This document shows positions 5,951 to 21,097 of a DNA stretch of 64,000 nt, one piece after another. The stretch spans positions 62,001 through 126,000 of the forward strand of contig CALXWW010000001.1 of the NCBI GenBank assembly GCA_944392545.1. The letters are read 5' to 3'. Position 1 is the first letter of the stretch; each line of letters begins with the position of its first letter. The stretch comes from an uncultured Clostridia bacterium (GTDB lineage Bacteria; Bacillota; Clostridia; TANB77; CAG-508). The translations under genes were made by a program, and so were the position numbers. The notes under the pieces are model-generated. The model worked only from the letters and a program-made list of their open reading frames with translations, was not told where the DNA came from and made no database searches.

Positions 5951-8900
5951 TTATTTCTCATCTTCAATATCTTCATCATTTAATAAATTATCTAAACCTA
6001 AATCTGTATCTGCAAGATTTATTTCATCATCAGATAGTTCTTCAAATAACGCTTCATCATCTTCTTGCTCTTCATCTGCTAAAACTGCATCTTCGCTATA
6101 ACCGTCATTTAACTCTTTTACGTCTAAAACGTCATCTCCTATTTTCTTGTCATCAATGTTATAGTCTATTCCATCATCTATATTTTCTTTAAGTTCTAGC
6201 TCTTGGTTATCTGGTGATAATAGTCTTACGTCTAAGCCTAAAGCTTGAAGTTCTTTAATTAATACCTTAAATCCTTCTGGAACTCCTGGTTCTGGAACAT
6301 TCTCGCCTTTGACTATAGCTTCATAAGTTTTAACACGTCCTACTGTATCATCTGATTTAACAGTAAGCATTTCTTGTAATGTATATGCTGCACCATATGC
6401 TTCTAATGCCCAAACTTCCATCTCTCCAAAACGTTGTCCACCAAATTGTGCCTTACCACCTAGTGGTTGTTGTGTAACTAATGAGTATGGTCCAGTTGAA
6501 CGAGCATGTATTTTATCATCAACTAAATGATGTAGTTTTAACATATACATAACACCAACTGTAACTGGATGGTCAAATGGATCTCCTGTTCTACCATCAT
6601 ATAGAGTTGTTTTTCCATCTTCTGAATATCCTGATTTTCTAAATAATTCTCTTATTTCTTCGTCTGTTGCACCATCGAATACTGGTGTTGCAACTTTCCA
6701 TCCTAATAGTTTAGCTGCCATTCCCAAGTGTACTTCTAGAACTTGACCCAAGTTCATACGAGAAGGAACACCAAGTGGGTTTAAAACTATATCTACTGGA
6801 GTACCATCTGGCATAAATGGCATATCTTCTTCAGGTAATATTCTTGAAATAACACCTTTGTTACCATGACGTCCAGCCATTTTATCTCCAACTGATATTT
6901 TTCTTTTTTGAGCTATATAGCAACGAATTACTTGATTTACACCAGGTCCTAATTCATCTGAATTTTCTCTAGTAAATATCTTAACATCTACTATTGTACC
7001 TGCTTCTCCATGTGGTACACGAAGTGATGTATCTCTAACTTCCCTTGCTTTTTCTCCAAATATTGCACGAAGTAATCTTTCCTCTGCTGTAAGTTCTGTT
7101 TCTCCTTTTGGAGTAACTTTACCAACTAATATATCTCCAGGTCTTACTTCTGCACCAATTCTTATAATTCCGTTTTCATCTAGGTCTTTTAATACATCAT
7201 CACCAACATTTGGTATATCTCTTGTTATTTCTTCTGGACCTAATTTTGTATCACGGCATTCACAATCATATTCTTCAATATGGATTGATGTATATACGTC
7301 TTCTTTAACAAGTCTTTCGCTAATTAATACAGCATCCTCGTAGTTATATCCTTCCCAAGTAGTAAATGCAATTAATACATTTCTACCAAGTGACATTTCT
7401 CCGTTTTTAGTTGAAGGACCGTCTGCTAATAAATCTCCTTCTTTAACTTTCTCACCTTTAACAACTACTGGTCTTTGATTAATACATGTACCACCATTAG
7501 TTCTTTTGAATTTTCTTAACTTATATGTATCTAATCCATCTTTATTATTTCTAACAATAATTTCATCACCAGTTACTTTTTCTACAATACCTGCATTTTT
7601 AGCTGTAACTGTTATTCCTGAGTCTTTTGCAGCTCTGTATTCGATACCTGTACCTACTATTGGTGACTCTGGCATTAATAGTGGAACTGCTTGACGTTGC
7701 ATGTTAGCACCCATTAATGAACGTTTAGCATCATCATGCTCTACGAATGGAATCATTGCAGCTGCAACAGATACAAGTTGTTTTGGAGAAACGTCTACAA
7801 AATCAACTTGTGACTTGTCAACCATTGTAATTTCTTCTCTCATTCTTACTTTTATCTTTTCGTTTACAAATCTTCCTTCTTCGTCTAATGGTTCTGATGC
7901 TTGAGCTATAATGTATTTATCTTCTTCGTCTGCTGGCATATACACTACTTCATCAGTAACTTTACCAGTTTCATGGTCTACTTTTCTATATGGTGTCTCA
8001 ACAAATCCATATTCATTTATTGTTGCAAATGATGAAAGTGCTGATATAAGTCCAACGTTAGGTCCTTCTGGAGACTCTATAGGACATAATCTACCATAGT
8101 GAGTATAGTGAATATCTCTAACTTCGAATCCTGCTCTCTCTCTTGAAAGACCTCCAGGTCCTAATGCAGAAATTCTTCTTTTATGTGTAAGCTCAGAAAG
8201 TGGATTTGTTTGATCCATAAATTGTGATAATTGTGAGCTTCCAAAGAATTCTCTTATTGATGATGTAATTGGTTTTGTATTAATCAATGTTTGTGGTGTT
8301 ATTACGTCTAGGTCTTGTATTGTCATTCTTTCACGAACAACTCTTTCTAATCTTGTTAAACCAATTCTAAATTGATTTTGTAATAGTTCTCCAACGCATC
8401 TTATACGTCTATTTCCCAAATGGTCTATATCATCAATTACTCCTAAACCATGATCTAAGTTTAGTAAATAACTAATTGATGCAATAATATCTTCTGTTGT
8501 GATATGCTTTGGAACTAATTCATCTATTCTTTCTTTTATAGTATCATGAAGTTCCTCTTCTTCTGTACTATCTATAATTGATTTCAATACGTCATAATTT
8601 ACATATTCTTTAATATGTAAGTCGCTTACGTCGACATTTGGTAAATATTTATGAATATTTACTGTTCCATTACCTATAATTCTTACTTTTGTATCATCTA
8701 CTTTAACGTCAACTATATTAATTCCAGCATTTTGGATATTTTCTGCAATTTCTTCGGAAATTACACTATCTTTTTCCACAAGTACTTCACCAGTCTCTGG
8801 GTCTACTATATTTTCAAAAGCAATTTTTCCAGAAATTCTTGAAGCTAAACTTAATTTCTTATTGAATTTATATCTTCCTACTTTTGCTAAATCATATCTT

Positions 8901-9685
8901 CTTGGATCGAAGAATAATCCATTAAATAAGTTTCTAGCAGCATCAACAGTTGGAAGTTCTCCTGGTCTTAATTTTTTATATATTTCAATTAATGCTTCTT
9001 CTTGTGTCTTTATTGGATCTTTTTGAATTGAAGCCTCTATTTTAGCTTCTTCACCAAATAACTCTCTTATTTGTTCATCTGTAATTACACCAATAGCACG
9101 TAATAATGAAGTCACAGGTATCTTTCTTGTTCTATCAACCCTTGCCCAGAATACATCATTTGCATCTGTTTCGTATTCTATCCACGCACCTCTTAAAGGC
9201 ATTACAGTTGAAGTATATATTTTCTTTCCTGTCTTATCATAAGCTGAATCATAGTAACATCCAGGTGAACGAACTAACTGGCTTACTACAACTCTTTCTG
9301 CACCATTGATAATAAAGGTACCACTATCTGTCATAAGAGGGAAATCTCCAAGATAAATTTCTTGTTCTTTAATTTCACCAGTCTCACGGTTGATAAGTCT
9401 TACCTTAACATGTAATCTTGTTGAATATGTAGCATCTCTTTCTTTAGCTTCTTCTACTGTGTATTTTGTTTTTTCTTCCATGTAGTAGTCTAGAAATTCT
9501 AGAATTAAATTTCCTGAATAATCAACTATCGGAGATATATCTCTTAATATTTCTCCTAGTCCTTCTTCTACGAACCAGTCGTATGAATCTTTTTGGACTT
9601 TGATAAGATTTGGCATTTCGATTGAATCGCCGATTTTTGCAAAAGTCTTACGAGAACATTTCTCGTGTTTAATTTCTTTTACCAA
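5951..9685 (-). CDS. rpoB: DNA-directed RNA polymerase subunit beta
   Basis: 1244-residue beta subunit of RNA polymerase. The rifampicin-binding region ([20 protein letters not shown], then [12 protein letters not shown], about residues 480-515) has the usual sensitive-type residues. The C-terminus extends into a long acidic Asp/Glu tail after the conserved [11 protein letters not shown]. The start codon is TTG at 9685, with AGGGGTGA at good spacing; no ATG fits better. It is first in a two-gene rpoB-rpoC unit driven by the promoter at 10039-10066. The usual rplJ-rplL genes are not upstream; a DGR-type locus is there instead. Confidence 0.98.
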
Positions 9686-10032
9686 AGAAAATCACCCCTA
9701 AAAAAGATTAAGCAGAATAAATATATATACTTTATCAAGAAGTCCTTCTTGTTTACGATATTATGTATACGTTTTTATGGTTTACTGCTCTCTAAACCTT
9801 TATTTCCGTAAATAATATTGTAACAATTCCTCTTCTTTCTAAATTTACATAACGAATGAAAAACGGCAATAAAAAGGCAGGTTGGCATTTTCTTAATTTT
9901 GCCAACTAACCTTCTTCTGTTTATTTGTTAAAATTTATTTTCCGAATTTAAATTTATTATTTTAATCACCCTTATTGTTTATTTAAGAGTTATTAAAGTT
10001 TTACCTAGCCGAACGATAAAACTCCCATGATA
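9686..10032 (-). promoter_or_regulatory. Long structured 5' leader of rpoBC
   Basis: About 350 nt separate the predicted start of transcription (near 10032) from the rpoB start codon. The leader begins with a hairpin at 9998-10022 (GTTTTA / TAAAAC stem around a GC-rich loop), then an AT-rich linker, then a terminator hairpin at 9871-9911, then about 185 nt more before the ribosome-binding site. That order (promoter, 5' structure, terminator, gene) is the layout of an attenuator. No known leader family was recognised; it does not obviously match the L10 leader. Confidence 0.55.
9871..9911 (-). terminator. Intrinsic terminator inside the rpoB leader
   Basis: Stem GTTGGCA / TGCCAAC (7 bp perfect), extended past a 2x2 internal loop by GGT / GCC, with a 12-nt AT-rich loop and an immediate TTTTT on the minus strand. 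It lies downstream of the rpoB promoter, so it would stop most rpoBC transcripts unless it is read through or antiterminated. Confidence 0.75.
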
Positions 10033-10856: not shown

Positions 10857-10985
10857 CTACAAATACAAGTTGAGACGGAATCCAAGGTGGTAGATGTTGC
10901 GAGTCGTAACATTACCGTAACGGTCAACAGTGAAATTATCGCTGCGGTCGTAGTTGCTTCCTCTACTAGTACATGCGTACACACC
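10857..10985 (-). other. Predicted DGR variable repeat (VR) at the 3' end of the target gene
   Basis: The final ~43 codons switch to about 50% G+C while the rest of the gene is AT-rich. They are dominated by codons that arise from AAC by adenine substitution (AAC, TAC, GAC, AGC, CAC, CGC), giving residues such as RGSNYDRSDNF and RNIYH. The stretch ends in the conserved lectin-fold core LGFRLNLYL, which is where VRs normally stop. The boundaries are estimates, since no template repeat is in the window to align against. Confidence 0.65.
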
Positions 10986-12122
10986 ACTGCTGCTAGTGTA
11001 ATTTGAATATTCTGTAGTCCATTCTTTTACATTTGAGCCCATATCATTTATTTTACATACTTCATCTGCATTTGTTCCTGTATTTGCTAAACTAGAGTTT
11101 TTACTTGTTTGATTTGCATAGTTTAATCCCGTTGCTTCTTGTATATATACTATTGCTGTATCCCATGCATAACTATTCATTAAATCACTTTTTACACTTG
11201 TGTTTCCATAAGTATTTATTGCTACTTTTGATGCATCTATCTGATTTATACAATTCCACAATGTTCCTGTTTTATATGACATACTATCTTCTGAATAACC
11301 ATTAGATATTTTTGATGCTGCTTTATAATCTGCTGTACTACTTCCACTCGCATAGCTTGCTTCATATCTTCCTATATAATATCCACCATTTGAACTTACA
11401 CTATCTATAAATCCTTTTAAGTCTTTTGCTGTTGCATTTTTCCCATCTGTTCCATCACTTGATACTCCAGGTCTATAATCCACAAGTTCTTTAAACTTCG
11501 ATTCTATTACTACACTCTCTGATTGATCTGTATAATTTGCTGCATCTTGAACTAATTCTGGATTTCCAGATACATCAAATGTATATCTTCCTAATTTTAT
11601 TTCACCACTTGGGCTTCCATTATCTTTTGTAAATGTTCCTACTGGTATCCACACATATTGACTACCTTGTACTGCTGTATCTTTTGATGCATTTACATCT
11701 TCTATTACTATTCCCTGCTGTACTGTATTTCCTGAATCAGACGCTATTCTAAATCCTGCTGGCACCCATATTTCATTATTTTTTGAATCTACTACTTTTG
11801 TTTTTTCATCAAATGCTTCTCCACCTTTTACTTCTTCTACTTTTGGTGTTTGTGGTGCTGGTGGATTTTGATCTTCTATTCCTACTAATATTCCATTTAT
11901 ATATTCCTCTGCGCCTGTCAATTCTTCCTGCTCATCTGTCTGTGCTTGTTCTGTTAAGCTCTTTCCTTCTTGTGCTCTTTGTATTAATCCTCCTTCTCCA
12001 AGCACAACATTTATTGATACTGTTGCTAGAATTATTAGAATTACTATTGTTATTACCAACGCAATTAATGTTATTCCTTTTTCTGCTTTTAAGGTTTTTT
12101 GAAACTTTTTATTTTTACTCAT
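10857..12122 (-). CDS. DGR-type variable surface protein (pilin-like anchor plus FGE/C-type-lectin fold)
   Basis: 421 residues. The N-terminus is prepilin-like: a basic leader ending EKG followed by ITLIALVITIVILIILATVS, so processing after the Gly and export by a type IV pilin-like system is plausible, although the usual Glu at +5 is Ala. From about residue 105 the sequence resembles the formylglycine-generating-enzyme/C-type-lectin fold (VWVPAGF, YVWIPVGTF, YYIGRYEASY, NDMGSNVKEWT, final LGFRLNLYL). This fold is the commonest DGR target type. The last 40-45 codons are GC-rich and full of NAC/NRC codons. The likely role is a surface ligand-binding protein with a diversifiable site. Start codon ATG 12122 has AAAGGAG upstream. 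Confidence 0.8.
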   Translation of the reverse strand: MSKNKKFQKTLKAEKGITLIALVITIVILIILATVSINVVLGEGGLIQRAQEGKSLTEQAQTDEQEELTGAEEYINGILVGIEDQNPPAPQTPKVEEVKGGEAFDEKTKVVDSKNNEIWVPAGFRIASDSGNTVQQGIVIEDVNASKDTAVQGSQYVWIPVGTFTKDNGSPSGEIKLGRYTFDVSGNPELVQDAANYTDQSESVVIESKFKELVDYRPGVSSDGTDGKNATAKDLKGFIDSVSSNGGYYIGRYEASYASGSSTADYKAASKISNGYSEDSMSYKTGTLWNCINQIDASKVAINTYGNTSVKSDLMNSYAWDTAIVYIQEATGLNYANQTSKNSSLANTGTNADEVCKINDMGSNVKEWTTEYSNYTSSSGVYACTSRGSNYDRSDNFTVDRYGNVTTRNIYHLGFRLNLYL

Positions 12123-12403: not shown

Positions 12404-12520
12404 TATGGATTGTAAATATCTTTTTTCTAACTTTTTTATTTTCTAACTTTTTTATTTTTTCTTAATTCTATTACATATTATAAATACTTTTATGTTTTCG
12501 AAAATTTATCATATATATCT

Positions 12521-12549
12521 TTCATACATATATTAAAATATGATATAAT
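12521..12549 (+). promoter_or_regulatory. Promoter placed for leaderless transcription of the radical SAM gene
   Basis: A perfect TATAAT (12544-12549) ends only 9 bp before the ATG at 12559, with a weak -35 TTCATA 17 bp upstream. Transcription would begin within about three bases of the start codon. No Shine-Dalgarno sequence is present. Confidence 0.5.
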
Positions 12550-12558
12550 CTTATCATT

Positions 12559-13491
12559 ATGGAAGAATTAGAAAGATATAAACACCTAAATAAATATTTG
12601 AAAGAAAAATTTGGAGAACGTACACTTAAAATTTGTATCGATGGTGGATTTACTTGTCCAAATAGAGATGGATCAAAATCATTTGATGGATGTATTTTTT
12701 GTAGTGAAAAGGGATCTGGAGAACATATTAAAATTGCTAATAATATTTCTCAACAAGTAAAAAATTATTTTAATAGCTATAAAGCTGAAAGAGCTAATAA
12801 ATTTATTGTGTATTTTCAAAACTTTACCAATACTTATGATTCTATTGAAAATTTAAAAGCTAAATATAATGCAGCTTTAATAGATGATAGAATTGTTGGA
12901 ATTTCTATTGCAACTAGACCAGACTGTATTAATGAAGAAATTGTTAAGCTTCTAAAAAGCTATTCTGATAAATATTATGTTTCTGTTGAACTTGGATTGC
13001 AAACAGCTAATGAAAAAATAGGTAAACTAATTAATAGATGTTATACTAACATAGACTTTACAAATGCTGTTAATCTATTAAACAAATACAGTATTGACAT
13101 AGTAACCCATATAATGATAGGCCTTCCAACAGAGTCAGAACAAGACATAAAAGATACTGTAGATTTTCTAAACCAACATAATATTCAAGGATTAAAAATT
13201 CATTCTTGTTATATTGTTAAAAACACTAAATTAGAAGAATTATATAATTCTAATTTATATACACCATTAGAATTAGACTATTATTTAAATTCTTGTGCAT
13301 ATGTATTAACTCATATTAATTCTAATATTATCATACATAGAGTGTCTGGAGATGCGCCAAAAGATTTGCTTGTCGCCCCACAATGGAATCTTCATAAAAA
13401 GTGGATTATTAATGGCTTAGATAAGCTTTTAAATGAAAGAGATTTGTGGCAAGGAATGCATTACAACATAAAAATAAAACAAGAGTCATAA
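12559..13491 (+). CDS. TIGR01212 (YhcC/YtqA) family radical SAM protein
   Basis: 310-residue radical S-adenosylmethionine protein. The cluster-binding cysteines are in GGFTCPNRDG followed by DGCIFC (C-x9-C-x2-C), the spacing of the YhcC/YtqA family rather than the classic CxxxCxxC. Family length and start agree: the N-terminus (YKHLNKYLKEKFG, then DGGFTCPN) begins where homologs do. The substrate is not established from sequence. There is no ribosome-binding site and a -10 box sits right before the ATG, so it may be translated as a leaderless mRNA. A terminator overlaps its last codons. Confidence 0.88.
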   Translation: MEELERYKHLNKYLKEKFGERTLKICIDGGFTCPNRDGSKSFDGCIFCSEKGSGEHIKIANNISQQVKNYFNSYKAERANKFIVYFQNFTNTYDSIENLKAKYNAALIDDRIVGISIATRPDCINEEIVKLLKSYSDKYYVSVELGLQTANEKIGKLINRCYTNIDFTNAVNLLNKYSIDIVTHIMIGLPTESEQDIKDTVDFLNQHNIQGLKIHSCYIVKNTKLEELYNSNLYTPLELDYYLNSCAYVLTHINSNIIIHRVSGDAPKDLLVAPQWNLHKKWIINGLDKLLNERDLWQGMHYNIKIKQES

Positions 13492-13546
13492 AAAATAATT
13501 TATAAGCATATATTATATAATATTATTTCTAAAACTCTTGTTTTTT
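13476..13546 (+). terminator. Terminator of the radical SAM gene
   Basis: AAAACAAGAGT and ACTCTTGTTTT form an 11-bp stem whose left arm lies within the last codons, and the right arm runs into TTTTTT. The loop is long (47 nt) and AT-rich, so the hairpin is plausible but unusual. Confidence 0.5.
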
Positions 13547-13560
13547 ATTTTGTAATTCTA

Positions 13561-13668
13561 TTATATTTTGATATGATATAGCGGTTTATTATACCCTTGT
13601 ATCTTATCTGGATTTTTCTCATAATCAATACAACGTATTGTTACTATATCTTCTTTTATTAGTTCCAT
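13561..13668 (-). CDS. Possible small ORF (35 codons)
   Basis: Reads MELIKEDIVTIRCIDYEKNP... to a TAA at 13561. Its ATG overlaps the end of a preceding 17-codon ORF (13659-13712, MELCDYCKKHYVRR) that has AAGAAGG upstream and a CxxC motif. The two may be one small zinc-ribbon-like gene broken by a frameshift. No homolog recognised. The surrounding 13547-13776 stretch has nothing else identifiable. Confidence 0.25.
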   Translation of the reverse strand: MELIKEDIVTIRCIDYEKNPDKIQGYNKPLYHIKI

Positions 13669-13776
13669 GTTCTTCTCACATAATGTTTTTTACAATAATC
13701 ACATAATTCCATACATTCCTTCTTTTAGATAAACTGTTGTATATAAACTTTATTATATGATACTATTTTTTCACAC

Positions 13777-13806
13777 AAAAAGAGCAGTCATTTAACTGCT
13801 CTTTTT
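13777..13806. terminator. Terminator of the GC-rich small gene
   Basis: AAAAGAGCAGT / ACTGCTCTTTTT perfect 11-bp stem with a 7-nt loop, followed by TTTTTGTG on the minus strand. It lies directly after the stop codon of the gene at 13815-14039. Confidence 0.85.
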
Positions 13807-13814
13807 GCTTAGGA

Positions 13815-14039
13815 TTATCTGTTGCCGCCTGCCTGGCCGGATACACCACTCTTCGGACTGTAGAAGGTATGGTTACCATCCTTGTCCTTCGAGTTCATCT
13901 GATTCACCTGAACATCGTGGCTCGGTTTGGTTCCCGAATAGTTGCACCAGGAAACGCCGTCAGAGTCATGACGTCTGGAATCACCAGCAGTCCCATGGTC
14001 AGAGACCATTCTGCTACCATTGTTGTTGTCCCAAGACAT
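13815..14039 (-). CDS. GC-rich 74-residue hydrophilic protein of unknown function
   Basis: Starts at ATG 14039 with AAGGAG eight bases upstream; the in-frame GTG at 14048 lies inside the ribosome-binding site and is unlikely. The product begins MSWDNNNGSRMVSDHGTAGD and ends SGVSGQAGGNR. It is rich in Gly, Asn, Asp and Ser, has one Cys and no membrane segment. Base composition is about 53% G+C and codons end mostly in C or G, unlike every neighbour. It has its own consensus promoter and strong terminator, so it is a well-expressed single-gene unit. I do not recognise the family. A structured RNA with a chance reading frame is the alternative. Confidence 0.65.
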   Translation of the reverse strand: MSWDNNNGSRMVSDHGTAGDSRRHDSDGVSWCNYSGTKPSHDVQVNQMNSKDKDGNHTFYSPKSGVSGQAGGNR

Positions 14040-14084
14040 ATGCAACACTCCTTAAAATTAATTCAAGCTACTGCTTGTAGATTT

Positions 14085-14113
14085 ATTTTAGCGTTTTTTC
14101 ATTATTATGTCAA
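14085..14113 (-). promoter_or_regulatory. Consensus sigma-A promoter of the GC-rich small gene
   Basis: TTGACA (14113-14108), exact 17-bp spacer, TAAAAT (14090-14085). The predicted start of transcription is near 14078, about 40 nt before the start codon. Confidence 0.8.
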
Positions 14114-14142
14114 ATTGTGGTAACAAATTTTTCTCCCCTTTA

Positions 14143-14177
14143 CAAAAAAGAGCTAACATTGATGCAAGTCTAACTCT
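14143..14177 (-). terminator. Terminator after the tRNA-like gene
   Basis: AGAGTTA / TAGCTCT (7 bp with one G-U) followed by TTTTTT on the minus strand, starting 23 bases after the encoded CCA of the tRNA-like sequence. Confidence 0.6.
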
Positions 14178-14199
14178 TAGGAATTCTTTTATGTTAAAA

Positions 14200-14275
14200 T
14201 GGTTGCAATGGTCTGACTCGAACTGACATACCTTAGTTTATGAAACTAAGAAGCTACCTTTACTACCCTACCGCA
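14200..14275 (-). tRNA. tRNA-Met(CAU)-like gene, degenerate
   Basis: A 76-nt stretch ending in encoded CCA has a perfect 5-bp anticodon stem with loop TTCATAA (anticodon CAU at 34-36), a normal T-loop TTCGAGT, GG at 18-19 and A21. The acceptor stem has two G-U pairs and one A-C mismatch, the T stem has one mismatch, position 8 is G instead of U, and the D stem barely pairs. The length and 3' end resemble initiator tRNA, but these defects suggest a decaying tRNA or an unusual one. It is followed by a terminator. Confidence 0.55.
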
Positions 14276-14444
14276 ATAGATTTTACAATAAAATCTAGTT
14301 CTTATTGTAATAACCTATTCTACTTTAATATGATATATTTTAACGTGCATATTCCCTTGCACACATATATATTACTATATATTTTGTTTAAACACAAAAT
14401 AGTTTCAACTTTCACATTTATATTTTACCATTTTTATACATTTG

Positions 14445-14804
14445 TCATCCCATCAATCTCTCTTTCCATTCGGTCTCTCTAAATCCAATTAAAATATCCT
14501 TTTCTGTAACTAATATAGGTCTCTTTACAAGCATACCATCACTTGCAAGTAGTTTTATTTTATCTTCTTCCGACATATTTATTAGTTTGTCCTTTAGATT
14601 TAACTCCTTATATTTCATCCCGGTTGTATTAAACCACTTCTTTATATCCTTCTTGCTTTGCTTTATCCATTTATTTAATTCTTTCTCTGTTGGGTTATTC
14701 TCTATAATATGTCTATCTGTAAACTCTATATCATTGCTTTCTAACCATTTTTTAGCCTTTTGACATGTTGAACATTTAGGATATTCTATAAATAAATTTT
14801 TCAT
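14445..14804 (-). CDS. ArsC/Spx-family protein
   Basis: 119 residues of the arsenate-reductase-like thioredoxin fold (the group containing Spx, MgsR and YffB). The N-terminus is FIEYPKCSTCQKAKKWLE with a CxxC redox pair, and the C-terminal KRPILV and IGFRETEW match the family. No arsenic genes are nearby, so an Spx/MgsR-like regulatory or general thiol reductase role is at least as likely as arsenate reduction. It is a single gene. Confidence 0.8.
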   Translation of the reverse strand: MKNLFIEYPKCSTCQKAKKWLESNDIEFTDRHIIENNPTEKELNKWIKQSKKDIKKWFNTTGMKYKELNLKDKLINMSEEDKIKLLASDGMLVKRPILVTEKDILIGFRETEWKERLMG

Positions 14805-14963
14805 ATTTTTCCTCCTTTAACTTATTATATAATTTATACCATAAAATAAACTATTATACAATTATATTATTAACATTATATTTTTTTACTGATAATATGT
14901 TTTTTCCTTTACATTTCTATATTTTCTTATATAATATATATAGTGTATAAATAGGAGTAATAT

Positions 14964-15485
14964 ATGGAAAAAAGAGATTTGTATGATATAAATAGAAAAC
15001 CTACTGGAGAAACTATTTTTAAAGGAGAAAAGATACCTCCTAATAGATATATTATTGTAGTTCTTTCTTTTATTCAAAATTCTAAAGGAGAATTTCTAAT
15101 TCAAAAGCGAAGTAAACAAAAGGACGGAAAGTTCGCTTCAACAGGAGGACATGTAAAAACAGGAGAAACTAGTATTGAAGGTATGATATCTGAAATACGT
15201 GAGGAAATTGGACTTAATATTACCCCTAATGAATTAGAATTAATTTATTCTGGAAGAGAAGATACTGAAAGGGTGTTTTTTGATATATATTACTTAAAGA
15301 AAGATTTTGATATTTCAGATTTAACTTTACAAAAAGAAGAAGTAGATTTTGTAGGATGGGATTCTATTAGCAGAATAGAAGAATTAATAGCTAATAATTT
15401 ATTTTTAGAAAATCATGTAGAAGAATTTTATAGGATGATTGATATTTTTAAGAAAAGAGGTGTTGATATTGAGCACTGCAAATAA
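14964..15485 (+). CDS. Nudix hydrolase
   Basis: 173 residues with a full Nudix box: GGHVKTGETS...EIREEIGL (G-x5-E-x7-REUxEExGU) at about residues 61-83. The flanking IQKRSKQKDGKFASTGGH pattern is typical of isopentenyl-diphosphate-isomerase-like or general NTP-cleaning Nudix enzymes. The substrate cannot be told. The start has AGGAG at good spacing. It overlaps the next gene by 17 bp, so the two are translationally coupled. Confidence 0.88.
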   Translation: MEKRDLYDINRKPTGETIFKGEKIPPNRYIIVVLSFIQNSKGEFLIQKRSKQKDGKFASTGGHVKTGETSIEGMISEIREEIGLNITPNELELIYSGREDTERVFFDIYYLKKDFDISDLTLQKEEVDFVGWDSISRIEELIANNLFLENHVEEFYRMIDIFKKRGVDIEHCK

Positions 15486-16347
15486 TTTTCTAGGTAAAAT
15501 TGTAAAAATAAAGGTTGATAGACCTCTTGGTAGTAAGCACCCTAAACATAGTTTTATTTATCCTGTAAATTACGGATATGTTCCTAACACAATAAGTGGT
15601 GATGGTGAAGAATTAGATGCATATATATTAGGCACTTTTGAGCCATTAGATGAATTTACAGGAAAATGCATTGCAATTATTCATAGAACTAATGATGATG
15701 ATGACAAATTAATAGTTGTTCCTGAAGATAAGACATATTCAGATGCTGAGATTATGGCTTTAACTGAATTTCAGGAGAGATTTTTTACTAGTATCATTAT
15801 CAGAGAAGATAACATTTTAAAAGAATCAAATGTTTCTTTTCATCCATCACTCTATATATTAACAGGCCCTCCTGGAGTTGGAAAAACCACAATTTCTAAT
15901 GAATTAGCTCAAAGCCTAGATAAAAGTGTTGTTATAGAGGGAGATGATATATATAATCAAGTTGTTAGTAGCCATGTAAGTCCATGGAAGGAAGGAAATC
16001 ACTTAGAAATTTTCTGGGAAATCTGTCTTAATACAATAGATATATATTTAAAAAATAATTATAATGTTGTTTTCAACTATATAATATCTCCTAAAGATTT
16101 AAATATATTAAAAACCAAATTTAAGAATTACACCCTAAGATTTTCTGTGTTACTAGCTAATAAAGAGACATTACTTGCTAGAGACTCTAAAAGGCCACTT
16201 GATTGCCAAATGCACGAGAGGTGTATTATACTACTAGAAAAATTTCAAACCCAATATGTAAGCTCTAATAATATAATAAACACTACAAATGCAAGTGTAA
16301 AAGATATTATTAACACTTTAAAAACTGACGACAAGTTTATTATATAA
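15469..16347 (+). CDS. Inorganic pyrophosphatase-P-loop kinase fusion
   Basis: 292 residues. The first ~115 are family I soluble pyrophosphatase-like (DRPLGSKHPKHSFIYPVNYGY, then SGDGEELDAYILG), shorter than a full PPase. The rest is a P-loop kinase-like domain with Walker A GPPGVGKTT at residues 133-141 and an acidic motif EGDDIY, resembling AAA_33/zeta-type small-molecule kinases. TTG at 15469 is chosen as start because AGAGGTG lies six bases upstream and homologous PPase domains begin there; the longer frame begins inside the Nudix gene without a ribosome-binding site. It may recycle pyrophosphate or phosphorylate a nucleotide-like substrate together with the flanking Nudix enzymes. Confidence 0.75.
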   Translation: MSTANNFLGKIVKIKVDRPLGSKHPKHSFIYPVNYGYVPNTISGDGEELDAYILGTFEPLDEFTGKCIAIIHRTNDDDDKLIVVPEDKTYSDAEIMALTEFQERFFTSIIIREDNILKESNVSFHPSLYILTGPPGVGKTTISNELAQSLDKSVVIEGDDIYNQVVSSHVSPWKEGNHLEIFWEICLNTIDIYLKNNYNVVFNYIISPKDLNILKTKFKNYTLRFSVLLANKETLLARDSKRPLDCQMHERCIILLEKFQTQYVSSNNIINTTNASVKDIINTLKTDDKFII

Positions 16348-16372
16348 TATAAAATTATGGAAGTGTATAAAT

Positions 16373-16882
16373 ATGAATATAGAAATAAGAAAAGCAAAAT
16401 TAGAAGATTGTGAAGAACTATCATATCTAAAAAGAGAAATATGGGAAACAACCTATAGAGGTATTTATCCTGACGAAAAATTTGATTCTTATAATTACGT
16501 GGGAAATGCTCATAAATTCGAGAATATTATACTAAGTAATGATATTTTCTTATATGTTGCTAGTGATAATGGTAAATTAGTAGGATATGTTGCTTTTGGT
16601 TCTCCATTAAGACCATTTAGAGATTACTCTAAAGAAATAGTTTTATTATACATAAAAAAAGAGTATCAAGGTATTGGTATCGGAAAAAAATTTTTTAATT
16701 TAGGATATGAGTATATAAAATCTCTAGGTGAAACAAAATTTTTAATTTCTTGTAATAAATATAATTTACCGGCTCAAGGTTTTTATGAAAAAATGGGAGG
16801 TAAAAAAGTATATATAGATGATGATATGGATAATAAAAGTATACCTCAAATAAAATATGAATATATAATTAATCGACACTAA
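16373..16882 (+). CDS. GNAT family N-acetyltransferase
   Basis: 169 residues with the GNAT acetyl-CoA loop (KKEYQGIGIGKKFF, about residues 98-111) and the C-terminal NLPAQGFYEKMGG pattern. The beginning IEIRKAKLEDCEELSYLKRE is the usual first strand and helix. The substrate is unknown. It sits 25 bp after the pyrophosphatase-kinase gene and 25 bp before a second Nudix gene, so it belongs to the same operon. Confidence 0.87.
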   Translation: MNIEIRKAKLEDCEELSYLKREIWETTYRGIYPDEKFDSYNYVGNAHKFENIILSNDIFLYVASDNGKLVGYVAFGSPLRPFRDYSKEIVLLYIKKEYQGIGIGKKFFNLGYEYIKSLGETKFLISCNKYNLPAQGFYEKMGGKKVYIDDDMDNKSIPQIKYEYIINRH

Positions 16883-16907
16883 TAAAATATAAAGGAGAAT
16901 TAAAGTT

Positions 16908-17408
16908 ATGGAAATGGTAGATAAATTAGATAATAAAAGACAAATGCTAAATAAAACAGCTGAACGTTCTGAAAAAACAAACGGAGAATATCGTCAATCT
17001 GTACATACATGGATAATGAATAGTAAAGGAGAATTTTTAATTCAAAAAAGATCTCCTAACAAAAAATTTTTTCCTAATATGTGGTCTCAAACTGGTGGAG
17101 GAGTTGATGAAGGAGAAACTACTTTACAAGCAGCACTAAGAGAATGTAAAGAGGAACTAGGAATCACTATAGATTTAATCAATATTGAACTAATTTTATC
17201 TTTTAAAAGAAAATTTGATTTTGTAGATGTATGGCTTGTAAAACAGGATATTGATATTTCTAATATATTATTGCAAGAAGAGGAAGTTTCTGACGTAAAA
17301 TGGGCTTCAATATATGAAATTAGAGAGTTAATGAAAACAAATAGACTTGCAAAAAGTATTGAAATATATTTTGATATGTTTATTAATTTAATAGATTATC
17401 CTTTTTAA
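16908..17408 (+). CDS. Nudix hydrolase (IPP-isomerase-like subgroup)
   Basis: 166 residues. The Nudix box reads GGGVDEGET...RECKEELGI; the upstream VHTWIMNSKGEFLIQKRS and MWSQTGGG are typical of the YfcD/IDI-like group. AAAGGAG precedes the ATG. It is the last gene of the four-gene plus-strand unit and is followed by a strong bidirectional terminator. It is clearly distinct from the first Nudix gene, not a recent duplicate. Confidence 0.87.
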   Translation: MEMVDKLDNKRQMLNKTAERSEKTNGEYRQSVHTWIMNSKGEFLIQKRSPNKKFFPNMWSQTGGGVDEGETTLQAALRECKEELGITIDLINIELILSFKRKFDFVDVWLVKQDIDISNILLQEEEVSDVKWASIYEIRELMKTNRLAKSIEIYFDMFINLIDYPF

Positions 17409-17483
17409 ACAAGTTATCTTTGTAAAATATTAAATAGTTAAATTTTATAATCAATTTATTCATAATTGTATAGTATATAAAAA

Positions 17484-17529
17484 TTAGCAGTTTGTAAAAG
17501 CTTTTTCTTAAGATTTTACAAACTGCTAA
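17484..17529. terminator. Bidirectional terminator
   Basis: A 16-bp perfect stem TTAGCAGTTTGTAAAA / TTTTACAAACTGCTAA lies between the convergent Nudix operon and histidine kinase gene, with A/T tracts on both sides. Confidence 0.85.
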
Positions 17530-17536
17530 CTTTAAT

Positions 17537-19603
17537 TCATTGTTCTTTTTCAAATTCTATTGTTACTTTAAATAGATCTCCATCTAGATGAATATTAAAC
17601 TTACCTTGTTGAAGTTCTGTTAAACTTGTTGCTATAGAAAGTCCTAGTCCGCTTCCCTCTGTATTTCTTGATGCTTCTCCTCTTACAAATCTTTGCATTA
17701 ATTCATCTGCACTTATGTTTAACTTTTGTTTAGAGATATTTTTTAGTTCAATCGAAACCACATTTCCTTTATCCAAAATATCTGTATATACTCTTGTTCC
17801 ATCCATTGCATATTTTGATATATTTGAATACATATTTTCTAGCACTCTATACATGTACCTACTATCTGCTTTAATATATACGTCTTTTTCTGGAAATGTT
17901 ATTACCTCCTCAAGTTCATGTGCCTTAAATTTGTCTTCAAATTCTCCTGATACTTGCTTTATCAATTCATTTACATTTAATTTTTCCATATTAAGTTTTA
18001 TTGTTCCTGAAGAAGCCTTAGATGCCTCTACTAAATCCTCTGTTAACTTTTTTAATCTTTGAGATTTGTTATCTAAAATTTCTAAATATTCCTTCGCCTT
18101 TTCTCCGTCCATTCCTTCTTTTTTTAATAAATCCACATAATTTATAATCGAAGTTAGAGGTGTTTTTATATCATGTGATACATTTGTAATGAGCTCGGTT
18201 TTTAGTCTTTCACTTTTTAGTCTTTCTTCTATTGCATTAGATAAACCTCCAGCTATATCATTAACTTCTTCTGACATATCTTGCATCTCTCTTGATAGTT
18301 CTTTCTGATCCAAATCTATATCTGTATTTCCTTTATATAGTTCATGTATTGCTTCTTTAACTTTTGCAAAAGATTTGACTGTTTTTGATAAATATCTAAA
18401 CGTAAATACATATAATGTAATTGATAAAATTACTCCTATAAATCCATCAGACCAAAGGATTGCAAAACATATTAGATTAGTTATTATAAACAATATAAAG
18501 TACAATAATAATTTCTTAGTTAATTTTAGGTCCTTAATAAAATTAACTATTTTCATATATACCCAATATATAAATGTTGTCTTTATAAAAGTATGTGTTT
18601 TTAATCTCTTTACAATTGTTTCAAAGAATAATATACAAGCCAAGTAAATTATTAAAAGTCCTACTCCTATTATTGAAAGACCTATTACAAATGAAGCCAT
18701 TGTAGAAATTCCACTCACACTAGCAATAAAACATACTCCTATTCCTCCTATAATTGTAGATATAAGCGCTGCAATTTCTATTAAAATTTTGTCATACCAG
18801 TTTAGTGATATTCCTTCTCTTTTACTTGTTTTTCCTATACCAAGTATAATCACTGGTATTAATAGTATTATTAATACAATTACTGCTGGTATTAATAATA
18901 CTGCTCTTTGATTTATTCCTAATAATATTGAATAGAAAATTTTATCTGTAGACAAATTATCTAAATATATCATATCATCTAATACCGCAGAATAAATTGT
19001 ATATGATTTTTTCTCATCTGTCTTGCTACTTTCTGTATTTGATGATTCTTCAAGAATACTTGAGTCTGATATTTCTAAAGCTCTCTGACTTATACCACTT
19101 TCTATATATTCTATATTGTCATTATTTAGTCTATTTATACTAGTTTCTATATTTCCATCTTGATAATTCCAATATCTTTGATTTTCCATTATACTATTTC
19201 TTATTTTTTCAACAGTACTTGTTTCTAGTGAATAGCTTAGGTTAGTATATGCTTCTTTTGTATCATTGTCAATTATTAACCAAATAACATTGTTTTCATA
19301 ATATTGAACAAGATAATTTATCTTTGTAATTCCACTATTTTCTTTTATTTCTTCTGTATACACATAATAACCATATTTTTTTTCTTTTAAATTATTTACG
19401 GCAGACAGAGCACTAAATACTTCAGTTGCATAATTCTCCGCAAAAGTATTAGTTTCATAATAACTTAAATTTTGTTTTATTGCATTTCTTTCTAATGGAT
19501 AAGTTAATGCTAGTATTAAAATTATAAATATTGCCATAAATACAGGGAACAATACATATGCTATATTCTTTAGTATTCTCGGTACACAAAGTTTTCTTTT
19601 CAT
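17537..19603 (-). CDS. Sensor histidine kinase
   Basis: 688 residues. One N-terminal transmembrane helix (about 14-36), a ~190-residue extracellular sensor region, then several transmembrane helices between about 225 and 410. This is followed by a HisKA domain with the phospho-acceptor in NVSHDIKTPLTSI and a HATPase_c domain ending SEGSGLGLSIATSL. The multi-helix membrane part is larger than in VanS-like kinases. It pairs with the response regulator gene 31 bp upstream. The signal is unknown and no resistance or transport gene is adjacent. Confidence 0.92.
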   Translation of the reverse strand: MKRKLCVPRILKNIAYVLFPVFMAIFIILILALTYPLERNAIKQNLSYYETNTFAENYATEVFSALSAVNNLKEKKYGYYVYTEEIKENSGITKINYLVQYYENNVIWLIIDNDTKEAYTNLSYSLETSTVEKIRNSIMENQRYWNYQDGNIETSINRLNNDNIEYIESGISQRALEISDSSILEESSNTESSKTDEKKSYTIYSAVLDDMIYLDNLSTDKIFYSILLGINQRAVLLIPAVIVLIILLIPVIILGIGKTSKREGISLNWYDKILIEIAALISTIIGGIGVCFIASVSGISTMASFVIGLSIIGVGLLIIYLACILFFETIVKRLKTHTFIKTTFIYWVYMKIVNFIKDLKLTKKLLLYFILFIITNLICFAILWSDGFIGVILSITLYVFTFRYLSKTVKSFAKVKEAIHELYKGNTDIDLDQKELSREMQDMSEEVNDIAGGLSNAIEERLKSERLKTELITNVSHDIKTPLTSIINYVDLLKKEGMDGEKAKEYLEILDNKSQRLKKLTEDLVEASKASSGTIKLNMEKLNVNELIKQVSGEFEDKFKAHELEEVITFPEKDVYIKADSRYMYRVLENMYSNISKYAMDGTRVYTDILDKGNVVSIELKNISKQKLNISADELMQRFVRGEASRNTEGSGLGLSIATSLTELQQGKFNIHLDGDLFKVTIEFEKEQ

Positions 19604-19634
19604 TTACTTCCTCCATTTCTAAAACTTTTATTAA

Positions 19635-20339
19635 TTAATCTATCTTTTCTATTTTATATCCTATTCCCCATATAACTTTTAGGTACTTGGGCTCTCTTGG
19701 ATTTATTTCTATTTTTTCCCTTATGTGTCTTATATGTACTGCTATGATATTTTCTGCACCATAACTTTCTTCTTCCCATACATTTTCATATATTTGTTCA
19801 ATTGAATAAACTATTCCCTTGTTTTTGGTTAAAAATTTAAGTATATTATATTCTGTAGGGGTTAATTTAACTTCTTTTCCGTCTACCTCTACCGTTTTAG
19901 TATCATCATTTATTACTAAATCTCCTGATTTATATATATTACTATTATTTTCCTTTTTTACCATAGAACCTAAGCTCGTATATCTTCTGATTTGTGAATT
20001 AACCCTCGCTATTAATTCTAATGGATTAAAGGGTTTAGTGACATAGTCATCCGCACCGTTATTTAGTCCAGAAATTTTATCATAATCCTCTGATTTGGCA
20101 GATAACATTATTATCGGTATTGATTTATCTTTTCTTATAATATTAGCTGTCTCTATGCCATCTAATTTTGGCATCATTATATCTAGTATAATAAGTTGAA
20201 TATCATTATTTTTCCTTAATATTTCTAATGCTTCATATCCATCATAAGCTTTTAAAATATTATATCCTTCTTTACTTAAATATATCTCTATTGCCTTTAC
20301 TATTTCCTTATCATCATCACATACTAAAATATTATACAT
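19635..20339 (-). CDS. OmpR/PhoB family response regulator
   Basis: 234 residues. The receiver domain has the acidic pocket (VCDDD), phospho-acceptor Asp in LIILDIMMPKLDG and the conserved Lys in YVTKPFNPLEL. The C-terminal winged helix (LTPTEYNILKFLTKNKG...VHIRHIREKIE) is OmpR type, most like the VanR/CssR group. It is the first gene of a two-gene unit with the downstream kinase; AAAGGAG precedes the ATG. Confidence 0.95.
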   Translation of the reverse strand: MYNILVCDDDKEIVKAIEIYLSKEGYNILKAYDGYEALEILRKNNDIQLIILDIMMPKLDGIETANIIRKDKSIPIIMLSAKSEDYDKISGLNNGADDYVTKPFNPLELIARVNSQIRRYTSLGSMVKKENNSNIYKSGDLVINDDTKTVEVDGKEVKLTPTEYNILKFLTKNKGIVYSIEQIYENVWEEESYGAENIIAVHIRHIREKIEINPREPKYLKVIWGIGYKIEKID

Positions 20340-20560
20340 AAAATTACTCCTTTTTAATTTAACTGTCTACATAACTATTATATCACATCTACCTTTTTCA
20401 CAAAAATAGTATAGCATAATTTTATTAAGAAAAAAGGAGGTATTTATTAATTTTTTATTAATTATCTGTCTTAATGTCGAATTTTGTCGGCTTATTTTTG
20501 TTGTTATATGTATCAACCTATGTTATACTTTTAGTATCATATTAGAAAGGAGGTAAACCT

Positions 20561-21097
20561 ATGGAACAGGAAACTCTATCACTTATATTATCAAAATTAA
20601 ATGAAATGGATACAAAGTTTGACAGTTTAAACGCCAAGATTGATTTAGTTCATAAGACTCTTAATGATAAAATAGATAATGTATTTAATGTGCTTAATAA
20701 GAGAATTGATGACGCAGTTATTGAACTTAACCAAAAATATGATGCACTTGATAAGAAAATCGATAACATTAATGAATCTCTTAACAAGAAAATCGATGAC
20801 GTTAATGAATCTCTTAACAAGAAAATCGATGACGTTAATGAATCTCTTAACAAGAAAATCGACGACGTTAATGAATCTCTTAACAAGAAAATCGACGACG
20901 TTAATGAATCTCTTAACAAGAAAATCGATGATGCTGTTATTGCCCTAACAGAAAGAATGGACTTTAGAATTGATGACGCATCTGAAACATTGAATGCAAA
21001 AATTGACTTTACATATAAGAGCCTATCTAATTCTTTAAATAGACTTGAGTCATATACTAAAAGCAACTTTGCTGAAATACATAATAATAATGTCTAA
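20561..21097 (+). CDS. Hendecad-repeat coiled-coil protein
   Basis: 178 residues, almost entirely predicted coiled coil, with no signal peptide or membrane segment. The centre contains five copies of the 11-residue unit NESLNKKIDDV, flanked by degenerate versions (NAKIDLV, NDKIDNV, NKRIDDA, DKKIDNI). Eleven-residue periodicity fits a right-handed hendecad coiled coil. A strong AAAGGAGG ribosome-binding site and a terminator on the far side suggest a single expressed gene. Similar repeats occur in phage tail-fibre-like and cytoskeletal proteins, but I cannot assign a function. Confidence 0.75.
   Translation: MEQETLSLILSKLNEMDTKFDSLNAKIDLVHKTLNDKIDNVFNVLNKRIDDAVIELNQKYDALDKKIDNINESLNKKIDDVNESLNKKIDDVNESLNKKIDDVNESLNKKIDDVNESLNKKIDDAVIALTERMDFRIDDASETLNAKIDFTYKSLSNSLNRLESYTKSNFAEIHNNNV
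20771..20935 (+). repeat. Five 33-bp in-frame tandem repeats
   Basis: The unit begins AATGAATCTCTTAACAAGAA and repeats five times with only C/T differences at the GAT/GAC codons. The near identity implies recent expansion, so copy number may vary between strains without shifting frame. Confidence 0.92.

What the first reader, a model, noticed from the sequence alone, without database searches (positions are those of the whole stretch)
13777..14113. Highly promoted GC-rich small gene of unknown function
A 74-codon gene at about 53% G+C stands in ~30% G+C surroundings, with a textbook promoter, ribosome-binding site and terminator. Codons end in C/G as in very highly expressed or foreign genes. 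The product is a soluble Gly/Asn/Asp/Ser-rich peptide. Several short hairpins (for example ATGGTC / GACCAT) leave open a structured or dual-function RNA. It may be an abundant protein or RNA not yet described.
Basis: partly seen in the sequence, partly recalled or inferred. Interest (0 to 1): 0.6.

Follow-up and report, generated by a model that had tools for sequence, protein, structure and literature searches.

The report
Phage-borne strongly promoted small-protein cassette
A tiny gut-bacterium gene that looks out of place turns out to be a real protein gene from an undescribed family that phages carry as a self-switched-on passenger and that also turns up alone on bacterial chromosomes; what the protein does is not known.

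Summary
In detail: a 74-codon minus-strand ORF (14039..13815, 51% G+C; other genes here average 28%) with near-consensus promoter, leader hairpin, RBS and intrinsic terminator. It is a protein gene, not an RNA: against an 82%-identical relative, 88% of silent but only 12% of replacement sites differ. Profile searches found nine members (eight independent loci) of a family matching nothing in Pfam, NCBIfam, PHROGs, PADLOC or PDB, seen only in the window's bacterial family, in about 2% of genomes. Every member keeps TTGACA-N17-TA(T/A)(A/T)AT and a terminator; most keep a leader hairpin. Three lie in phage regions with different terminases, always between the late regulator (phrog_36) and the packaging genes. 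Related phages have about 85-107 bp there and no gene, the criterion for a 'moron'. The other five loci, including this one, are solo chromosomal copies. The codons are foreign, not those of a highly expressed host gene (EF-Tu shows the opposite bias), and the coding region has no conserved RNA fold. Best reading: a phage moron cassette stranded on the chromosome, making a small soluble protein during lysogeny. An anti-superinfection role is the leading guess but is unshown. New family of a known kind; moderate interest.

The parts
14108..14113 (-). -35 box TTGACA
   Evidence: TTGACA in all eight loci at 17-nt spacing
14085..14090 (-). -10 box TAAAAT
   Evidence: TA(T/A)(A/T)AT in all eight loci, 45-57 nt before the start codon
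14064..14077 (-). leader hairpin CAAGC-AGTA-GCTTG region (CAAGCAGTAGCTTG)
   Evidence: hairpin of differing sequence in most leaders; summed strength reached by 5 of 2000 shuffles
14048..14053 (-). ribosome-binding site AAGGAG
   Evidence: sequence
13815..14039 (-). 74-codon gene for a hydrophilic protein of an undescribed family
   Evidence: nine members aligned; silent sites 88% different, replacement sites 12%, against G143
13777..13806 (-). intrinsic terminator AAAAAGAGCAGT-TAAATG-ACTGCTCTTTTT
   Evidence: nearly the same terminator sequence in four independent loci, once per locus

Best explanation
The feature is a phage 'moron' cassette: a self-contained unit (strong sigma-70-type promoter, leader hairpin, RBS, 63-77-codon gene, intrinsic terminator) that temperate phages of one family of gut Clostridia carry at the junction between the late regulator and the DNA-packaging genes, and that also persists as solo copies on chromosomes, as here. 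Shown: real conserved protein, autonomous transcription signals, placement in three unrelated phage genomes, absence from related phages at the same junction, patchy spread. Inferred: with its own housekeeping-type promoter it is transcribed while the rest of the prophage is silent; the leader hairpin protects the short mRNA; the terminator keeps this transcription out of the late operon; and the 7-9 kDa hydrophilic protein (mostly disordered N-terminus, weakly predicted C-terminal beta-strands) acts in the host cell. My best guess for its action is protection of the lysogen against competing phages (about 0.3); that step is weakly supported.
For: Protein under selection. Promoter in all eight loci, leader hairpins, shared terminator. 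In G143, G313 and G086 it lies between a phrog_36 late regulator and TerS/HNH/TerL/portal, with TerL proteins of different groups. Related phages have about 85 and 107 bp at this junction and no gene against about 1.2 and 1.5 kb in G143 and G086. Patchy distribution, about 2% of genomes, foreign codons, and a low-divergence block shared with G016 point to horizontal spread. [quoted passage not shown]
Against: Five of eight loci, the window included, are not in recognisable prophages, so a host-first origin is possible. No relative in phage, plasmid or viral-contig collections. The phage relatives with an empty junction are distant (TerL about 50% identical). No expression data. That the three phage regions are intact or inducible was not tested. 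No defence-family match.
Confidence: 0.7

Rival explanations
1. It is primarily a bacterial gene for a small cellular protein (for example stress-related), which phages have picked up several times.
For: Five of eight loci sit among ordinary chromosomal genes with intact ORF and signals.
Against: Only about 2% of genomes of the bacterial family have it; absent from nearly all genus relatives and at no shared site; foreign codons; three unrelated phages carry it at the same junction.
Confidence: 0.15
2. It is a regulatory element of the phage late switch, like lambda pR'-tR': a constitutive promoter and early terminator upstream of the packaging genes that the late regulator overrides.
For: Position directly after the late regulator and before TerS, with strong promoter and early terminator.
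Against: The product is a conserved protein; related phages lack the unit; solo copies keep promoter and terminator without late genes.
Confidence: 0.08
3. The transcript is a structured or dual-function RNA.
For: Coding RNAs of the family fold more stably than synonymous-codon shuffles (mean z -1.9 against -0.45 for 60 control segments); recurrent leader hairpin.
Against: The window copy itself is unremarkable (z -0.9). RNAalifold finds no consensus structure on the codon alignment. Silent sites are saturated while the protein is conserved. No Rfam match.
Confidence: 0.04

Closest known systems
P22 pid moron (86-aa Pid protein of Salmonella phage P22; PMC3573128)
   Same: [quoted passage not shown] the protein, not an RNA, is active.
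   Different: Unrelated sequence; pid runs against its neighbours, here the gene runs with the late genes; pid is not reported as solo chromosomal copies in what I read. Pid's target operon is known; this protein's target is not.
Prophage accessory loci expressed in lysogens (e.g. BstA, PMC8585504; survey PMC7067206)
   Same: Predicted constitutive expression of one passenger gene in an otherwise silent prophage.
   Different: No sequence relation tested or expected; defence function not shown here; this protein is far smaller than typical defence proteins.
Lambda pR'-tR' late-promoter leader (from general knowledge)
   Same: Strong promoter and early terminator between the late regulator and packaging genes.
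   Different: Here the transcript encodes a conserved protein, related phages lack the unit, and it persists without late genes.

Membership tests
Phage moron (accessory) locus | Gene inserted at a junction that is uninterrupted in related phages | tested here: met
   Regulator to HNH or TerS distance about 85 and 107 bp without the gene in relatives of the G143 and G086 phages; distant relatives only; not testable for G313
Phage moron (accessory) locus | Own promoter and terminator | tested here: met
   (sequence signals, not measured transcription)
Phage moron (accessory) locus | Composition differing from the surrounding genome | tested here: met
Phage moron (accessory) locus | Expressed in the lysogen and not needed for phage growth | not testable with these tools
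   No expression or deletion data
Phage moron (accessory) locus | The window copy itself lies in a phage | tested here: not met
   Neighbours are chromosomal genes; only a possible Cys-rich remnant in G016. The family is moron-type; the window copy is a solo copy
Structured non-coding RNA | Conserved base pairing with freely changing coding frame | tested here: not met
   Frame and protein conserved; no consensus fold of the coding region; no Rfam match
Anti-phage defence gene | Similarity to a known defence protein | tested here: not met
   No PADLOC match for any member
Anti-phage defence gene | Protects the carrier from other phages | not testable with these tools
   Inferred only from moron biology

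The most novel reading that the evidence does not exclude
A new class of very small, strongly and constitutively expressed prophage proteins that moves as a promoter-hairpin-gene-terminator cassette into one fixed junction of unrelated phages and is then kept by the host as a solo gene because it blocks other phages.
Probability: 0.25. Interest if true: 0.6.

Novelty: new member of a known kind. Interest (0 to 1): 0.38.

Why it matters
It adds an undescribed protein family to the phage accessory genes of uncultured gut Clostridia and marks the late-regulator/terminase junction as a place to look for more. The cassette is small and self-contained, so its effect on host and phages can be tested directly. 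It also shows how G+C-rich codons in an AT-rich genome can be misread as a sign of high expression, although the genome's own highly expressed genes do the opposite.

Tried and rejected
Known families: none. Phage and plasmid records and viral contigs: no relative. Weak genome hits (G559, G655, G740, G208, G014, G801) looked at and judged chance, being near threshold and mostly within long unrelated frames. Antisense overlapping gene: not open in all members, and silent sites are saturated. Conserved RNA fold: RNAalifold gives none; the family-wide excess of coding-RNA folding is unexplained. Integration repeat of the tRNA-Met end near the gene: none of 11 bases or more within 12.5-16 kb. Structure prediction and fold search: confidence too low to use (mean pLDDT 49 and 54), no match at E <= 0.001. 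The first alignment had one member on the wrong strand and was discarded.

Full report
Observation. The minus strand of the window carries a 74-codon ORF at 14039..13815 with AAGGAG 8 nt before ATG, TTGACA-17-TAAAAT ending 45 nt upstream of the start (11 of 12 consensus bases) and a perfect terminator at 13806..13777. At 51% G+C it is the most G+C-rich 225-bp stretch of the 64 kb.

Protein or RNA. A relative in a rabbit-gut Clostridia MAG (L036, the same place as G143) is 82% identical in protein but only 73% in DNA; 88% of silent sites and 12% of replacement sites differ. Profile searches added G313, G255, G291, G123, G086 and G033. The nine members (eight independent loci) align with ten invariant columns. 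RNAalifold finds no common fold of the coding region. So the selected product is the protein. One oddity: the coding RNAs of the family fold more stably than synonymous-codon shuffles (mean z -1.9 against -0.45 in 60 control segments, P about 1e-4), although not notably in the window copy; no shared structure accounts for it.

Codon usage. EF-Tu of the same genome uses 6% G-ending NNR codons and no C or G at four-fold sites; the window gene uses 86% and 51%. Well-expressed host genes do raise C-ending NNY codons (EF-Tu 0.37, HU of G291 0.77), but the gene does not follow the rest of that pattern. All members have more C/G at four-fold sites than the genes compared beside them. Foreign origin or a separate compositional pressure fits; host translational optimisation does not.

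The cassette. All eight loci have TTGACA-17-TA(T/A)(A/T)AT 45-57 nt upstream of the start. Most have a 5-6-bp hairpin between the -10 box and the RBS whose sequence differs from locus to locus (CAAGC/GCTTG, ACCTA/TAGGT, GTCTA/TAGAC, CATCT/AGATG, CAGTC/GACTG); the summed strength is reached by 5 of 2000 shuffles, though single hairpins are not significant and G123 is weak. All loci end in intrinsic terminators; four have nearly the same sequence (GAGCAGT..(A/G)CTGCTC, once per locus) and a fifth is a shorter version. The unit therefore seems to have spread together with its signals.

Where it lies. In G143, G313 and G086 it lies among phage genes: after a phrog_36 late transcriptional regulator and before terminase small subunit or HNH, terminase large subunit and portal. 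The three large terminases match different phage groups. In a human faecal phage related to that of G143 (TerL 49%) the regulator is followed after about 85 bp by HNH and TerS; in one related to G086 (TerL 53%) the regulator is followed after 107 bp by the homologous TerS (41% identity). In G143 and G086 the same junctions are about 1.2 and 1.5 kb. [quoted passage not shown] In the other five loci, the window included, neighbours are ordinary chromosomal genes. The window site (between a radical-SAM gene and an ArsC-family gene) is arranged differently and lacks the gene in the genus relatives compared. Between the window genome and G016 the block 13492-14275 differs by about 1%, the adjoining radical-SAM gene by 6.6%, as expected if the block was exchanged recently. 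A Cys-rich small ORF follows the gene in all three phages, and G016 has a 50-aa ORF with four Cys in the same place that is broken in the window; similarity is too weak to prove descent (E = 0.44).

Spread. Seven of 326 sampled genomes of the order, all in one family; G033 and G016 were seen in other draws; no convincing hit outside that family in samples of the class (391 genomes, narrower profile) or phylum (199). No relative in the phage, plasmid or viral-contig collections.

Mechanism. Shown by sequence: conserved protein, autonomous signals, phage placement, empty junctions, patchy spread. [quoted passage not shown] Guess: protection against competing phages. The closest worked example is P22 Pid, an 86-aa protein from a late-region moron, whose protein rather than RNA is active (PMC3573128). 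The fold could not be predicted with confidence.

Verdict.

Noticed in passing
window 14200..14275 (-): A tRNA-Met gene with its own terminator stands directly upstream of the cassette in the window and G016, but no tRNA is found in the stretches flanking the radical-SAM gene in the other genus genomes compared; it may have come with the cassette or mark an integration site.
   Followed up: partly
window 13561..13740 (-): Reading frame of a Cys-rich small protein just downstream of the cassette is broken in the window; an intact 50-aa ORF with four Cys exists in G016, and Cys-rich ORFs follow the gene in the three phages.
   Followed up: partly
window 20747..20928: 33-bp tandem repeats inside a predicted coiled-coil ORF (20561..21097), with copy number differing from G016.
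   Followed up: no
L049 (G291) 9343..9776 and 6655..7088: A 434-bp duplication of the murA 5' end (98% identical) brackets about 2.3 kb of other DNA, starting right after the cassette terminator.
   Followed up: partly
window 12505..20500 against L037: Divergence between the two sister species jumps from gene to gene (silent sites 0% to 29%; e.g. the GNAT gene at 16373..16882 has one difference), suggesting recombination between species.
   Followed up: no
window 10857..12122 (-): A 421-aa protein with a pilin-like N-terminus (GITLIALVITIVILIILATVSINVVLGEGG) and no Pfam match; a similar N-terminus starts downstream of the cassette in G255 (L048).
   Followed up: no
coding regions of the eight family loci: Coding RNAs fold more stably than synonymous-codon shuffles across the family although no common structure exists; cause unknown.
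   Followed up: partly
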